From a virus, in the IMG/VR virus record IMGVR_UViG_3300048588_000756, positions 1-28,121 of that record: 28,121 nucleotides of DNA, one strand, 5' to 3'. A model generated the notes under the pieces. It was not told where the DNA came from and searched no databases. It worked only from the letters and a program-made list of their open reading frames with translations. Below, one piece after another: positions 1,789 through 16,181 of the stretch. Numbering within the stretch: position 1 is the first letter of the stretch; the number at the start of each line of letters is the position of its first letter. The position numbers and the translations under genes are program-made.

Positions 1789-1805
1789 ATACAGTTTAAT
1801 TGTAT
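1789..1805. promoter_or_regulatory. Operator-like palindrome O1
   Basis: ATACAGTTTAATTGTAT is an imperfect 17-bp palindrome with ATACA/TGTAT arms. It sits between the divergent Cro-like gene (starts at 1720) and repressor gene (starts at 1837). A second copy in inverted orientation at 1822-1838 matches it at 14 of 17 positions, which is how repressor operator sets usually look. It is probably the binding site of the 1837 repressor, the Cro-like protein, or both. Confidence 0.6.
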
Positions 1806-1821
1806 ATAAGTCAAACAAAAA

Positions 1822-1838
1822 ATTCAGATAAACTGTAT
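1822..1838. promoter_or_regulatory. Operator-like site O2 overlapping the repressor start codon
   Basis: Read on the minus strand, this 17-mer shares 14 of 17 bases with O1, including the half-site ATACAGTTTA. Its centre lies 33 bp from that of O1, about three helical turns, so two bound dimers would face the same side of the DNA. It overlaps the ATG of the repressor gene at 1837, which suggests direct autoregulation. No Shine-Dalgarno lies between it and the start. Confidence 0.55.
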
Positions 1839-2277
1839 GAATGAAGAAAAAAATTTTGCCTCTCGTGTTAAAGCTTTAATTACTGAATTAAATATTTCTC
1901 AGGCTGAATTTGGTCGCCTCATCGATAAAAAGCCTGCCTTCATCTCAGAAGTTGTTTCTGGACGTTCACTTTTATCTGCGGAATCACTTACTCTAATTCG
2001 AAATAAATTGAATGTGAATCCGCTCTGGCTACTTGCTGGAGAAGGAGAAATGTTTGTCTCGGAAATTGAGCTAAAAAGAGATCAGGCAACAGATCAGGCA
2101 GTTGAATTGAGCCGTTTCGTAAATCGAAATCCCGAAATTCGGGAGTTGGTTCAAGGTTTAAAAGCAATCCCTGCAAAAAATCAAAGCCGCCTAGTCAAAC
2201 TACTCATTAAGGTTTTAAGCCACTCTACGAAGGATCTGGAGCGTTTAGAGGGCTATCTGGATGGGATGGGGAAGTGA
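1837..2277 (+). CDS. XRE-family phage repressor
   Basis: This 146-residue protein has an N-terminal XRE/Cro-type helix-turn-helix: ALITELNISQAEFGRLIDKK (residues 13-32), then PAFISEVVSGRSLLSAESL, ending in NVNPLWLLAGEGEMF, which is characteristic of phage-type XRE repressors. The C-terminal half (about residues 85-146) is helical and charged, with no S24/LexA peptidase motif, so induction by RecA-stimulated self-cleavage is not supported. No Shine-Dalgarno precedes the ATG and an operator-like site overlaps it, so a leaderless transcript like that of lambda cI is possible. It is divergent from the Cro-like gene and followed directly by an intrinsic terminator. It probably maintains lysogeny by blocking the leftward early operon. 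Confidence 0.85.
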   Translation: MNEEKNFASRVKALITELNISQAEFGRLIDKKPAFISEVVSGRSLLSAESLTLIRNKLNVNPLWLLAGEGEMFVSEIELKRDQATDQAVELSRFVNRNPEIRELVQGLKAIPAKNQSRLVKLLIKVLSHSTKDLERLEGYLDGMGK

Positions 2278-2463: not shown

Positions 2464-2670
2464 TTGGCCGCATTAACAAACTGGAACGAAAAGAAATTTA
2501 ATCCTGTAGTGATTGAAAATGCTCTGCGTTCGTATGAAGACAAGAATTCAGAATCCGAAACCTCTCATGAAAAATGGTCAAATGCAATGCGAGCATTAGA
2601 AGGAAACTTCGATGAGGCTTTTGGTAGAGCAATTCAATCCCTTGATGATCACTATAAAGGAAAGAAGTAG
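2464..2670 (+). CDS. Hypothetical 68-aa protein, first gene of a two-gene cassette
   Basis: The frame opens with a TTG at 2464, supported by a GGAG seven bases upstream. The 68-residue product is acidic and helical (NPVVIENALRSYEDKNSESE, then KWSNAMRALEGNFDEAFGRA) and has no recognised motif. It ends nine bases before the 173-residue gene at 2679, so the two are probably co-transcribed. A small protein before a larger one resembles antitoxin-toxin or immunity-effector order, but nothing in the sequence itself proves that. It could also be an ordinary lysogeny accessory gene. Confidence 0.5.
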   Translation: MAALTNWNEKKFNPVVIENALRSYEDKNSESETSHEKWSNAMRALEGNFDEAFGRAIQSLDDHYKGKK

Positions 2671-2678
2671 ATTCCATA

Positions 2679-3200
2679 GTGGTAGAAGCTCGGCGCATTG
2701 AGAGAAAGCAATTCATACAAGCTGAAATAGAAAGACTTTTTTCAATCGGTAGATTTCATAAGGAAGTCATACAAGTTGATGAAGGTCTAATTGATTCAGC
2801 CCTTGATCTACATTTTGCAAGAATTGACTCTTGGAACAAAAATGTATTCACATCCCATGAAGAAGGAAAAAGAGCAGATCGGCATAAGGTTGGAGCCAAC
2901 ACTGCTCTAGCTATAATGGAGCATAAGCCGCTGAAAATCGTTCCAGGTTGCCAAACCAATGCATATGAGTCATCTGCAAATGGTTACTTGGCTATGAAAT
3001 TAGCTTTAGCAAGAGTTTTTTCTGAGAATGAAAGCAAATTAAAAATTTTTAAATTCCCTGAGAGAGAAATACTTCAAATGCTTTCCACTTTAAATCAAGC
3101 TGAATGGACTCCTAAAACATTTTCTCTAGATTTGTACCGAATGGAAGAACAATATTTGGAAAAATACAATGAATTTTTATTACCAACAGGTGCACGATAA
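2679..3200 (+). CDS. Unrecognised 173-aa helical protein, accessory cassette
   Basis: The start is a GTG at 2679 with a purine-rich AAAGGAAAGAAG about 13 bases upstream. The product is almost entirely alpha-helical in appearance. The most distinctive segment is around residues 63-85 (GKRADRHKVGANTALAIMEH, then KPLKIV), followed by NAYESSANGYLAMKLALARV. This Arg-Asp-x-His-Lys pattern before a hydrophobic helix recalls helical HEPN-like proteins in layout, but it does not fit the standard R-x4-6-H motif cleanly, so I do not assign that fold. Located between repressor and lysis genes, where morons and superinfection-exclusion genes are often found. Its 3' end overlaps the convergent gene 3180-3350. 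Confidence 0.55.
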   Translation: MVEARRIERKQFIQAEIERLFSIGRFHKEVIQVDEGLIDSALDLHFARIDSWNKNVFTSHEEGKRADRHKVGANTALAIMEHKPLKIVPGCQTNAYESSANGYLAMKLALARVFSENESKLKIFKFPEREILQMLSTLNQAEWTPKTFSLDLYRMEEQYLEKYNEFLLPTGAR

Positions 3201-3350
3201 AATCTCCTCTGCATACCGATGCACCAAAACTTCCAACGAGTCTTCACCAAATTCTACCTCGTAAATAAATAGTTTTAGCTTTTCTTGAATTCTCAGATTT
3301 AACAAAATTTCTTTCAATTTTTTTTGGTTATCTCCTTCCACAACATCCAT
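3180..3350 (-). CDS. Small hypothetical protein, 56 aa, convergent to the cassette
   Basis: The frame can start at 3365, but the ATG at 3350 has GGAG six bases upstream. A TATAAA -10-like hexamer at 3374-3369 would also put the transcript start near 3362, after the longer start. The product begins MDVVEGDNQKKLKEILLNLR, continues with KLKLFIYEVEFGEDSLEVLV and ends SCTCW. It looks like a short helix followed by a strand-helix unit. No family is recognised. It overlaps the tail of the 173-residue gene by 21 bases in convergent orientation, so the two transcripts could form an antisense pair. Confidence 0.4.
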   Translation of the reverse strand: MDVVEGDNQKKLKEILLNLRIQEKLKLFIYEVEFGEDSLEVLVHRYAEEILSCTCW

Positions 3351-3368
3351 GTTTTTCTCCAACATTTC

Positions 3369-3394
3369 TTTATACCGTCATCTGTATAGTATAC
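3369..3394 (-). promoter_or_regulatory. Possible operator and -10 of the 3180-3350 gene
   Basis: On the minus strand TATAAA (3374-3369) lies at a plausible -10 position for the small gene. The perfect 11-bp palindrome GTATAGTATAC at 3384-3394 would fall in the spacer/-35 area, the usual place for an operator. No good -35 hexamer is seen, which would fit an activated or regulated promoter. Confidence 0.3.
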
Positions 3395-3427
3395 TGAGAT
3401 TGGGACATTTTTGGCGACGAAAAAGTA

Positions 3428-3792
3428 CAATATTAGAAAATTCTTCTGCCTGAATTCCGGACTCCAGGCAGTGAAATTTAATTCAATTTAAACTTTTTTT
3501 TGGACTGCGATGCAATAAATCGGAATTGGATCCGAAACAAAAATCGCAAACGAACTGAGAAAAGAATCTTTTTGTTCATTTGAAACTCCACTGCCTTTGT
3601 TTGGATTTTTCTCTTTTGAGAAAGCAAAGGCGCTTTACTTAATTAGTAGTGGAGTTAGAAAATTTTTGAGATTTTGGAAACTATTTCAAAAGCAGAATAT
3701 GAAAATCGTTTATACGATCTGAATTAAATTTCATTTTAATTTAAAAAAAACATTATAGATGCAATAAAAATAAAAAGATCAATATTAGAAAA
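3428..3792. ncRNA. Repeat-dense non-coding region, candidate structured RNA or small non-autonomous element
   Basis: No convincing gene lies between 3366 and 3874. The region holds ordered repeats. CAATATTAGAAAA occurs at 3428-3440 and again at 3780-3792. Inverted 14-mers lie at 3472-3485 and 3720-3733 (TGAAATTTAATTCA and its exact complement). GATGCAATAAA occurs at 3509-3519 and 3758-3768. A hairpin at 3446-3471 (CTGCCTG/CAGGCAG) abuts the left 14-mer. Inside the 14-mer pair is a nested structure: an outer stem 3584-3592/3648-3656 (AACTCCACT/AGTGGAGTT), a contiguous inner stem 3593-3599/3625-3631 (GCCTTTG/CAAAGGC), and an apical stem 3608-3613/3618-3623 with a TTTT loop. Such nesting is typical of a folded RNA. 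The flanking direct repeats would instead fit a small mobile element. Strand and function are not determined, and no reverse transcriptase is nearby. Confidence 0.4.
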
Positions 3793-3874
3793 AATTAAAA
3801 TCATCGATTTAGTTTCGATAATTACTCGACTTGCGAAAATTGAAATTCAGATAATATATCGAAGGAGAAAGTTA

Positions 3875-4264
3875 ATGGCTGATAAAGAATGGGATTTTGG
3901 ATTCGGACAAGTAAAGGTATTTATTGATGGAGAAACATTAAAATTTAAACAAACCATGGTGGGAGAAAAATCATTTCCACTAGGTTCCACAAAAGTTTCT
4001 GTATCAAAAGAACTTATGACAATGGAGATATCTTTTTTAGTTTCTGGAGTATCGAAAGAAACGATCAAAGTTCCAAAAAGTAAAAAAACAATCATAATGG
4101 CAGACGAAATAGAAAAATATGTGAACGAATATCAAAGCAATCATGTAAAAAATTCGCAATCAAATGATTTAGATCAGTTAGAAAAACTACAAGATTTAAA
4201 AACGAAAGGAATTATAACGGAAGAGGAATTTTCAGCAAAGAAAAAGCAAATACTAGGTCTTTAA
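3875..4264 (+). CDS. SHOCT-domain protein with beta-rich N-terminal domain
   Basis: The ATG at 3875 has a strong AAGGAG seven to eight bases upstream. The 129-residue product has a beta-rich N-terminal part (residues 8-70, strands such as VKVFIDGETLKFKQTMVG and KVSVSKELMTMEISFLVS) that resembles a bacterial PH-like domain. After a charged linker comes a C-terminal SHOCT domain, about residues 99-129 (LDQLEKLQDLKTKGIITEEE, then FSAKKKQIL). SHOCT domains are short oligomerisation or protein-contact helices, common on phage and membrane-stress proteins. There is no signal peptide. As a stand-alone gene after a long non-coding stretch it is probably a lysogeny-expressed accessory gene (moron); its actual role is unknown. 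Confidence 0.75.
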   Translation: MADKEWDFGFGQVKVFIDGETLKFKQTMVGEKSFPLGSTKVSVSKELMTMEISFLVSGVSKETIKVPKSKKTIIMADEIEKYVNEYQSNHVKNSQSNDLDQLEKLQDLKTKGIITEEEFSAKKKQILGL

Positions 4265-4356
4265 ATTCAAGCAATGTGGTTTGATGATGTAGCAATTTAA
4301 TTCTCGACCAAAAAGATCGTTTTGCATTCCCACTTGACAAGCGTAAAACTACAAAA

Positions 4357-4725
4357 ATGTATGACCTCATGGAAAAATCAGGGCATACATTTGAAGGTTC
4401 GCTATTCAGTAAAGAGCCACTTCGCTTGGTAAAAAAAGAAATGGATCCGCAAAGTTCAAACGATGCAATTCCAAATGATCCGGAAGAAACAATGACATGT
4501 GCACAAGTCGCCGCATTACTCAAGTGCGCTGATCGAACGGTCACAAATTATCGTAGAGAGGGAAAATTGGGAAAGTATTGGAAACTAACTCAAACTCACT
4601 TTCTTTACTCTCGAAAAGGTGTGAATGAATTTTTTGAAAAGTCTTTCTTTGAAAATTATGATGCCGAACTTGATGCTAAAGAATCATCCAGAAGAGTTTC
4701 GAAAGTAAAGCGTAAGTCCGCTTGA
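4357..4725 (+). CDS. MerR/excisionase-type helix-turn-helix protein
   Basis: A helix-turn-helix of the HTH_17/MerR-like excisionase type occupies about residues 45-92: MTCAQVAALLKCADRTVTNY, then REGKLGKYWKLTQTHFLYSR and KGVNEFFEK. The pattern (T-x3-VA-x-LL-x5-RTV, then a wing ending in a hydrophobic residue and a short helix) is that of Xis and phage regulatory proteins. The tail is basic (KVKRKSA). The start is uncertain: the ATG at 4357 has no Shine-Dalgarno, and ATGs at 4369, 4441 or 4492 are possible. TTGACA at 4334-4339 could be a -35. Placed just before the lysis and late genes, it may be a late-gene activator or an excisionase; the sequence does not decide. Confidence 0.7.
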   Translation: MYDLMEKSGHTFEGSLFSKEPLRLVKKEMDPQSSNDAIPNDPEETMTCAQVAALLKCADRTVTNYRREGKLGKYWKLTQTHFLYSRKGVNEFFEKSFFENYDAELDAKESSRRVSKVKRKSA

Positions 4726-5726: not shown

Positions 5727-6416
5727 ATGGTTTCAAATCCTCACACAGCCAAATTTGCTTACGATTATCTAACACAAAGAGACAACAGTTTGGTGATCCA
5801 AGTCATTGATGGTTGGGTATGGAATTATGAAACCAAAAAGAAATTGTTTCCAGTTTCTGAAATGGACAAAAGAGAATCAGAACTCTTTGATCGAACAACG
5901 GAATGTTTTATTTCTTCCGGATCTATGTTTGCAGGATGCCTTCATAAAGCTGGTATTCTTGCAACCATCATCGATGAGCTGACATACAAAATCAATGTCA
6001 TCGATCATTTAAAAAGAAAACAGACTCGATTTTTTTGGGAATCTCATAAGCGCGTATTCAATGAATTTTATCTGAAAGATTCGGAGTATGAATTTGTTTA
6101 TGAAAAAGTAAATGGTAACGAGGATAAAATTCGAGCGTCGATTGATGCAGGCTTCGTTGTTATATGTTCCATCTGGATTAAGCCTTGGTATCCTTCTGGC
6201 CGTGGCCATCTCATTATCATAAAAGGATACGTTTTAGATCAGAATGGAAATATAACTGCTTGGATCTGCGATGATCCGTTTGGTGACTGCCTTTCAAAAT
6301 ACATTAATCATAATGGACACGATGTCAGATACGATTTGAAGAATTGGAGAATGATGATGAATTCTCCCGAAGATAAACCGAGATTATTTGGATATGTAAG
6401 GAAGAGAATAAAATGA
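5727..6416 (+). CDS. Papain/C39-like cysteine peptidase, candidate endolysin
   Basis: This 229-residue protein has the arrangement of a C39-like (peptidase C39_2) papain fold: a candidate nucleophile Cys60 in TECFISSGSMFAG at the start of a helix, His161 in GRGHLIIIKGYV, and Asp182/183 in WICDDPFGD. The spacing and the aromatic strands before the His (VVICSIWIKPWYPSGRG) fit the family. Such domains act in phages as peptidoglycan endopeptidases or amidases. It has no signal peptide, so it would need a holin to reach the cell wall; holin-like genes flank it on both sides. It ends in an ATGA overlap with the next gene. The endolysin role is an inference from the cassette; a virion-associated or maturation peptidase is less likely. 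Confidence 0.7.
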   Translation: MVSNPHTAKFAYDYLTQRDNSLVIQVIDGWVWNYETKKKLFPVSEMDKRESELFDRTTECFISSGSMFAGCLHKAGILATIIDELTYKINVIDHLKRKQTRFFWESHKRVFNEFYLKDSEYEFVYEKVNGNEDKIRASIDAGFVVICSIWIKPWYPSGRGHLIIIKGYVLDQNGNITAWICDDPFGDCLSKYINHNGHDVRYDLKNWRMMMNSPEDKPRLFGYVRKRIK

Positions 6417-14826: not shown

Positions 14827-15792
14827 ATGGCAAGAGCATTATTTAGAAAAGAAGATTTCAACTACATCCAGAAACGAATTCTTACTCCACGTAAGAACGA
14901 ACTGGTAGTTCGAAGTATCTTCTCCATCAACAACGAGACTCCTACTTATTCGCATACGTTCGAAGTTGAGAATGTGCAAGATACAGGATCCGCTCAAGTT
15001 GTAGAATCTGGTGCAGATTCGGACAACATCCCTTTTGTTGGTGAATCAGTTGGTTCCCAGAAAGGAGTTCTATTCAAAATTCGTGATGCAATTCGTATCA
15101 CAGAAGATGACTTAGAAGCGGCTGATGCGAGACGGCAATCAGGCAAAGGATCTGAGTATCCAGTTCAGGAGAAACGTCTCGATGCGGCACGTAGATTCAT
15201 CGCAGAATCCGAAAACAAACTTGGTCTTCACGGTTTTGTAAAAGCTGGTAAAATTGTCCAACCAGGTTTATTGAATTGGCCTGGAGTTGTAAGTGAACCA
15301 GTTTCCGGAGCAAATACTGATGCTAGACTGTTTTCTGGAAAGACTCCTCAAGTCATCTTGAAAGACATCATCGATGCGAAGAAACAATTGGAAGGATCTG
15401 GAAAATTTAAAGCAGCAGGAATACTTATTTCCGATGAAGATTATCTGCATCTATTAAATCCATATTCTGAATCGACCACAATCACTATCTTACAGTGGCT
15501 ATTGTCGCATCAAGATTTGGTTTTTCCAAAAGGTTTCATTCGCTCACAAGATATTACTCCACAACATTCTGGTTTCAAAGATGGAAACACGAAAGTCGGT
15601 GGTTTTGCAATTTTTGATGATTCGGCTGATGTGGCTGAATTTATGATCGCACGTGATCTGGAAGTTGTGCAAACGCCTTGGGATGAATATCGCGGAGAGA
15701 TGAAGATCAAATGTCATGAAAAAGTTGGTGGTATCTATGTTTACCAACCAAAAGGAATCGTGATTCGAACTGGCTCATCTAAGGCCGCTTAA
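14827..15792 (+). CDS. Major capsid protein (DUF2184-like)
   Basis: The 321-residue product has the layout of DUF2184-type HK97-fold capsid proteins: an N-terminal arm, a strand-rich E-loop-like region (TYSHTFEVENVQDTGSAQVV), a spine helix region (KRLDARRFIAESENKLGLHG-like, around residues 117-140), the typical GLLNWPGVVS loop (about 149-158), TPQVILKDIIDAKKQLEGSG, and a C-terminal beta-strand set that ends QPKGIVIRTG. AAGGAAAAT precedes the start. It follows protease and decoration genes and precedes the DUF4054-type connector. Each capsid would contain several hundred copies, so this gene should be among the most strongly expressed. There is a 47-base gap after it. Confidence 0.82.
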   Translation: MARALFRKEDFNYIQKRILTPRKNELVVRSIFSINNETPTYSHTFEVENVQDTGSAQVVESGADSDNIPFVGESVGSQKGVLFKIRDAIRITEDDLEAADARRQSGKGSEYPVQEKRLDAARRFIAESENKLGLHGFVKAGKIVQPGLLNWPGVVSEPVSGANTDARLFSGKTPQVILKDIIDAKKQLEGSGKFKAAGILISDEDYLHLLNPYSESTTITILQWLLSHQDLVFPKGFIRSQDITPQHSGFKDGNTKVGGFAIFDDSADVAEFMIARDLEVVQTPWDEYRGEMKIKCHEKVGGIYVYQPKGIVIRTGSSKAA

Positions 15793-15839
15793 GCGAACCA
15801 AATTTAAGGTAAATTAAAAAGGTTTAAGGAAACACCATC

Positions 15840-16181
15840 GTGGGAATATCAACCGTTCAACAATTAAGAGGTTTCTTGCAAGAGAAAGTGCAAGGTGTCA
15901 GTGATGATACGTTGCAAATTTACCTCGATGATGCTGAAGGTTCTGTATTCTCCGGTGGTGTTTCTGTTTCGCATGCGAGATTTGCAGAACTGCAAAGATA
16001 TTTTACAGCACATCTTTTAGAATCGGTCGGTATCATTCCAAAAATGGTAACATCAGAATCAGCTGATGGGATATCCAGATCCTTCGATACTGCCTTCATT
16101 CCAGGATCTAAGGAAACTTACCTAGATCTATATAAAAGAAAACTCCATGAAATCAATGGGTTTAAAGGGAGGGTCTTCTGA
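15840..16181 (+). CDS. Head-tail connector (DUF4054-like)
   Basis: The start is a GTG at 15840, with AAGGAAA about eight bases upstream. The 113-residue product is helical with the layout of DUF4054 adaptor proteins that follow DUF2184 capsids: SDDTLQIYLDDAEGSVFSGG near the start, LQRYFTAHLLESVG as the helical core, then a loop and GSKETYLDLYKRKLHEINGF. Such adaptors bind the portal ring and form the upper neck. It ends in a TGATG overlap with the next gene. The motif match is moderate and the gene order supports it. Confidence 0.68.
   Translation: MGISTVQQLRGFLQEKVQGVSDDTLQIYLDDAEGSVFSGGVSVSHARFAELQRYFTAHLLESVGIIPKMVTSESADGISRSFDTAFIPGSKETYLDLYKRKLHEINGFKGRVF

What the first reader, a model, noticed from the sequence alone, without database searches (positions are those of the whole stretch)
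3428..3792. Ordered direct and inverted repeats with nested stems in 500 bases of non-coding DNA
Seen: 13-bp direct repeats at 3428 and 3780, exact 14-bp inverted repeats at 3472 and 3720, 11-bp direct repeats at 3509 and 3758, and inside them a three-tier stem (9 bp, 7 bp, 6 bp with a TTTT loop) at 3584-3656, plus a hairpin at 3446-3471. The outer 14-bp pair would close a domain of about 260 bases. This could be a phage-encoded structured RNA (regulatory or decoy type) or a small non-autonomous mobile element with terminal inverted repeats. Neither is an annotated feature type I can match.
Basis: seen in the sequence. Interest (0 to 1): 0.7.

Follow-up and report, generated by a model that had tools for sequence, protein, structure and literature searches.

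The report
Phage micro-peptide gene with self-silencing leader
The "non-coding" repeats turn out to lie over a tiny phage gene, read on the opposite strand, for a 33-residue, strongly positively charged peptide whose messenger RNA folds so that its ribosome-binding site is hidden, an arrangement like that of bacterial type I toxin genes, although toxicity and a partner antitoxin RNA are not shown.

Summary
What is conserved is a roughly 230-bp block (3436-3662). It is 84% identical between this phage and IMG/VR contig 3300020213_000106 (L006), slightly more than terminase and far more than the neighbouring small gene (58%).

The block acts on the minus strand. It contains, in order: a three-way-junction leader; a Shine-Dalgarno (SD) sequence paired in the closing stem in both phages, with two compensatory base-pair changes; an unannotated 33-codon ORF (3478-3579, MNKKILFSVRLRFLFRIQFRFIASQSKKKFKLN); and a terminator hairpin. 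Of 11 substitutions in the ORF, 9 fall at third codon positions and 8 codons change silently (P about 0.001 each).

So this is neither an untranslated RNA nor a mobile element. It is best read as a micro-protein gene whose mRNA is born translationally silent, a hallmark of type I toxin-antitoxin genes. The peptide (net charge about +10, predicted single amphipathic helix) fits that class but matches no family. No antitoxin RNA, transcript or toxicity is shown, so membership remains open. Only two sequences were available, and no Leptospira chromosome could be searched.

The parts
3436..3662 (-). Conserved block: leader, micro-ORF and terminator of one small minus-strand gene
   Evidence: 83.7% identity to L006 against 82.8% for terminase and 58% for the adjacent small gene; minus-strand fold z -5.6
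3478..3579 (-). 33-codon ORF with stop: MNKKILFSVRLRFLFRIQFRFIASQSKKKFKLN
   Evidence: Same frame open in L006 474-575; 9 of 11 substitutions at third positions, 8 of 11 changed codons silent
3586..3589 (-). Shine-Dalgarno GGAG, six bases before the ATG
   Evidence: Read from sequence; unpaired probability 0.00 in every transcript length tried
3584..3592 (-). Stem P1, 3' arm AGUGGAGUU, contains the SD
   Evidence: Two pairs changed on both sides in L006; MFE
3648..3656 (-). Stem P1, 5' arm AACUCCACU (anti-SD)
   Evidence: Pairs with 3584-3592
3636..3648 (-). Small hairpin UACU/AGUA inside the three-way junction
   Evidence: Unchanged in L006
3593..3631 (-). Hairpin P2: 7-bp stem GCCUUUG/CAAAGGC (3625-3631 with 3593-3599) and inner 6-bp stem UUUCUC/GAGAAA (3618-3623 with 3608-3613)
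   Evidence: All pairs kept in L006, one as a U-G wobble
3446..3471 (-). Terminator-like hairpin after the stop codon, with a U-rich tail to about 3436
   Evidence: 26 of 26 bases identical in L006, where the tail has seven U and the scan calls it a terminator; the window's tail is poorer and was not called
3752..3782 (-). Candidate promoter TTGATC-N19-TATAAT for a transcript of about 310 nt
   Evidence: Consensus match only; not conserved in L006
3720..3733 (-). Right arm of the 14-bp inverted repeat; would join the 5' and 3' ends of a long transcript
   Evidence: Present only in this phage

Best explanation
Positions 3436-3662, read on the minus strand, are a small independent phage gene: a folded 5' leader, a ribosome-binding site, a 33-codon ORF and a terminator hairpin. 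Shown by sequence and comparison: the ORF is under purifying selection, the SD is paired in a leader stem in both phages, and that stem is kept by compensatory changes. Inferred: the transcript is translationally silent when made and is opened by processing, unfolding or loss of an inhibitor. It then yields a cationic amphipathic helix that acts on the cell membrane, as in type I toxin genes. An antisense RNA antitoxin is expected on this reading but is not shown.
For: ORF open in both phages with 9 of 11 changes at third positions (P 0.0014) and 8 of 11 changed codons silent (P 0.00095). SD at the right spacing in both and closed in stem P1, unpaired probability 0.02 or less, as low as in only one of 14 other genes. 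Two double changes in P1; excess of kept double changes on the minus strand only. Block more conserved than terminase. Terminator hairpin identical, called in L006. Peptide with ten basic and no acidic residues, helix predicted. SD occlusion is named a major hallmark of type I toxin genes (PMC6733600).
Against: Only two sequences. No transcript, promoter, antisense RNA or toxicity shown. The peptide's helix is amphipathic rather than a plain membrane span, and it matches no known toxin family. The window's terminator tail is weak. P values are not corrected for the few frames examined.
Confidence: 0.55

Rival explanations
1. A silent small-peptide gene that is not a toxin: the peptide is a phage regulator (for example a basic RNA- or DNA-binding helix), and the leader is a thermosensor or ligand-responsive switch controlling its translation.
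For: Same gene anatomy. The leader is an elaborate three-way junction with conserved internal loops, more than a simple SD hairpin. Location between the repressor region and the late genes.
Against: No Rfam riboswitch or thermosensor match; P1 is a full 9-bp stem in the window, stable for a thermosensor (inference); no family match for the peptide.
Confidence: 0.27
2. An untranslated structured regulatory RNA on the minus strand; the open frame is incidental.
For: Strong fold and conservation. Best predicted target is the start of the repressor gene at 1837.
Against: Silent-change and third-position excess in exactly the frame that follows an SD. Target not significant: 44 of 200 shuffled RNAs reach the same best score.
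Confidence: 0.12
3. Leader or attenuator of the 56-aa gene downstream on the same strand (3180-3350).
For: Same strand, hairpin about 85 bases before the start codon; the two are inherited together in the two phages.
Against: The small gene has its own conserved upstream element TTGTCC-N9-11-TATACT, shared with related phages that lack the block. The block contains its own SD and ORF.
Confidence: 0.04
4. A small non-autonomous mobile element bounded by the repeats.
For: Ordered direct and inverted repeats around a conserved block.
Against: One copy in the record; no copy elsewhere for exact probes except L006; repeats absent from L006, and homology there continues through the left boundary to 3198.
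Confidence: 0.02

Closest known systems
AapA/IsoA type I toxin-antitoxin genes of Helicobacter pylori (AapA1, 30 aa)
   Same: Peptide of about 30 residues with basic ends; mRNA whose SD is masked by an anti-SD; possible 5'-3' end pairing in the window (PMC6733600, PMC8309996)
   Different: No antisense RNA shown; no sequence similarity found; here the SD is closed by a three-way junction conserved between phages; charge is much higher
Other membrane-acting type I toxins (TisB, Hok, ZorO, Fst)
   Same: Short helical peptide, silent primary transcript (PMC8309996, PMC6733600)
   Different: No Pfam, NCBIfam, PHROGs or Rfam match; those have a more hydrophobic membrane span (own knowledge)
Prophage regulatory RNAs such as STnc6030 of BTP1 or lambda OOP
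   Same: Unannotated small RNA gene of a temperate phage (PMC7067206)
   Different: Those act as antisense RNAs; here a conserved ORF is present and no gene of 60 aa or more is overlapped on the opposite strand

Membership tests
Type I toxin-antitoxin system | Small peptide ORF, hydrophobic or amphipathic, with positive charges | tested here: met
   33 aa, charge about +10, predicted helix 4-32; ORF conserved
Type I toxin-antitoxin system | Primary transcript with occluded SD | tested here: met
   Predicted in both phages, SD unpaired probability 0.02 or less, stem kept by double changes; computed, not probed
Type I toxin-antitoxin system | Antisense RNA antitoxin | tested here: inconclusive
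   Only a conserved 7-of-12 promoter-like site on the plus strand (CAGGCA-TAAACT, -10 at 3489-3494); no transcript data
Type I toxin-antitoxin system | Peptide toxic when overexpressed | not testable with these tools
   Needs expression in a laboratory strain
Known type I toxin families (Pfam, NCBIfam) or Rfam RNA families | Sequence or covariance-model match | tested here: not met
   No match
Non-autonomous mobile element with terminal repeats | Several copies with conserved ends | tested here: not met
   Single copy in the record; ends not conserved in L006

The most novel reading that the evidence does not exclude
A new type I toxin-antitoxin family carried by temperate phages of spirochaetes (a 2021 review states that membrane-associated type I toxins had been described only in Proteobacteria and Firmicutes, PMC8309996), with a three-way-junction leader that masks the ribosome site, a geometry more elaborate than the usual local SD hairpin.
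Probability: 0.3. Interest if true: 0.65.

Novelty: new member of a known kind. Interest (0 to 1): 0.45.

Why it matters
If true, it adds a silent, strongly basic micro-peptide gene to a poorly studied group of phages, in a site next to the lysogeny genes where cargo is exchanged. It would extend type I-like control to a group where it has hardly been described. It also shows that a 'structured non-coding' stretch can hide a gene below annotation cut-offs, detectable from only two genomes by its silent changes.

Tried and rejected
Rfam and ARAGORN: nothing. DNA searches of phage and plasmid records with the window's and L006's versions: none, apart from a chance 29-bp plasmid match. Exact-pattern scans of viral contigs: only L006; the 12 extra hits of a 17-mer are unrelated, and the weak peptide resemblance in some of them comes from the probe itself. 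Covariance model in 18 other loci and in 10 related phage records: no member beyond the two. Untranslated small RNA acting on phage mRNAs: no target significant after allowing for 42 genes. Retron, type III toxin-antitoxin and tmRNA were considered: no reverse transcriptase among the genes looked at, no toxin-sized partner, no tandem repeats, no tmRNA. Plus-strand late-operon leader rejected: related phages carry a TTGACA element right at the first late gene, and leader pairs that are wobbles on the minus strand would be mismatches on the plus strand. A first full-length fold scan of the window timed out and was repeated at lower depth.

Full report
Observation. The listed repeats and stems are all present. 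Shuffling 3380-3880 with dinucleotides kept gives direct repeats of 13 bp or more in 28 of 1000 and inverted repeats of 14 bp in 5 of 1000 cases, so the outer repeats are weak evidence. The folding is strong: for 3420-3800 z is -4.0 on the plus and -4.2 on the minus strand; for the conserved core 3436-3665 it is -5.6 on the minus and -3.2 on the plus strand. In a 200-base scan of the whole record only 15801-16000 scores higher.

Relatives. The record is a 28-kb fragment of a tailed phage. Terminase searches gave two close relatives (L006, L007, 92% protein identity) and a group of phages from isolate genomes at 63-66%. Only L006 reaches the region. Homology runs from 3198 to about 3654-3660 at 78% DNA identity and stops there. 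Genes on both sides of this module differ between the two phages: the left neighbour in L006 encodes a different protein end, and the right neighbour is a lipoprotein-like gene instead of a SHOCT-domain protein. The right-hand repeats of the finding lie outside the homologous block.

Which strand. The RNAalifold consensus on the minus strand keeps 56 pairs, three of them changed on both sides; two of these are in the stem P1, and the third is in a long-range helix I do not rely on. Column-shuffled alignments give z -5.1 for the minus and -4.6 for the plus strand. Mapping each phage's own fold onto the other gives an excess of kept double changes on the minus strand (P 0.016-0.042) and none on the plus strand. 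Single changes in the helices that are G-U wobbles on the minus strand would be A-C mismatches on the plus strand. Some of these lie inside the ORF and are confounded with silent changes, so only those in the leader are independent. The evidence is consistent but rests on two sequences.

The hidden gene. Reading the minus strand showed an ATG six bases after a GGAG. The ORF 3478-3579 encodes MNKKILFSVRLRFLFRIQFRFIASQSKKKFKLN; L006 474-575 encodes MNKKILFSARLRFLFRIQFRFIASQSKKKFKMK. Of 11 substitutions 9 are at third positions (binomial P 0.0014), and 8 of 11 changed codons are silent, against 24% expected (P 0.00095). These P values are not corrected for the few frames looked at; a factor of about ten would still leave them near 0.01. 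The whole block is 83.7% identical, compared with 82.8% for the terminase gene, 62% for the next shared gene and 58% for the 56-aa neighbour. The ORF is below the usual length cut-off and was missed in the first ORF listing here too.

The leader. The GGAG (window) or GAGG (L006) sits in stem P1: AACUCCACU with AGUGGAGUU in the window, UGAAUCUCU with AGAGGUUCA in L006. The SD is unpaired with probability 0.02 or less in both phages at every transcript length tried; among 14 other genes of the window scored in a similar way only one is as closed. The start codon is also paired in the window but partly open in L006. After the stop codon follows a hairpin identical in 26 of 26 bases and, in L006, a tail with seven U. 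The window's tail is poorer and was not called by the scan.

Ends of the transcript. The 3' end is presumably near 3436. The 5' end is unknown. The best promoter-like match is TTGATC-N19-TATAAT at 3782-3752, which would give about 310 nt and let the 14-bp inverted repeat join the 5' and 3' ends, as described for some type I toxin mRNAs (PMC6733600). That repeat is absent from L006, so I treat it as optional. Promoter prediction by E. coli consensus is unreliable in Leptospira, if that is the host (PMC5243855).

The peptide. It has ten basic and no acidic residues, pI 12, and a helical moment of 0.69 at residues 11-21. AlphaFold2 from the single sequence gives one helix 4-32, mean pLDDT 85. There is no match in Pfam, NCBIfam, PHROGs, PDB sequences or phage records.

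Mechanism. Shown by computation: conserved ORF, SD in a conserved stem, terminator hairpin. Inferred: translation is off in the primary transcript, and opening by processing or loss of an inhibitor releases a membrane-active peptide. A non-translatable primary transcript is described as a major hallmark of type I toxin loci (PMC6733600), and small helical peptides with positively charged ends are typical (PMC8309996). Not shown: any transcript, an antisense RNA (only a 7-of-12 promoter-like site), or toxicity. A peptide regulator behind a sensing leader is the main rival.

Neighbour. The 56-aa gene downstream on the same strand has its own element TTGTCC-N9-11-TATACT, shared with related phages that lack the block, so the block is probably not its leader. 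That small protein is predicted to be two helices (mean pLDDT 83).

Verdict.

Noticed in passing
window 15801-16000: Strongest RNA-folding signal of the record (z -6.4 plus strand, -4.8 minus strand), directly after the 321-aa gene ending at 15792; perhaps a terminator of that gene.
   Followed up: no
window 3180-3365 (-); L118 4056-4232, L119 4079-4273, L121 4087-4281 (-): Repressor genes of this phage group are followed by convergent small genes of 50-64 aa, in several cases with a shared upstream element TTGTCC-N9-11-TATACT; the window's member is predicted to be two helices.
   Followed up: partly
window 3875-4264; L006 815-1222; L009 6042-6959: Apparent cargo site before the late genes: a SHOCT-domain protein here, a lipoprotein-like gene in L006, a MORN-repeat-like secreted protein in the other phages.
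   Followed up: partly
window 2464-3200: Two genes (68 and 173 aa) between the repressor and the block; the 173-aa protein has no relative in Pfam, PHROGs, NCBIfam, phage records or the viral contigs scanned.
   Followed up: partly
window 4333-4360; L112, L118, L120 and L121 near 5900-6000: A TTGACA element close to the start of the first late gene is kept across the phage group and may be the late promoter, perhaps giving a nearly leaderless mRNA.
   Followed up: no
window 1797-1857: The translation start of the repressor gene at 1837 is the best predicted pairing partner of the minus-strand RNA, but not significant after allowing for 42 genes.
   Followed up: yes
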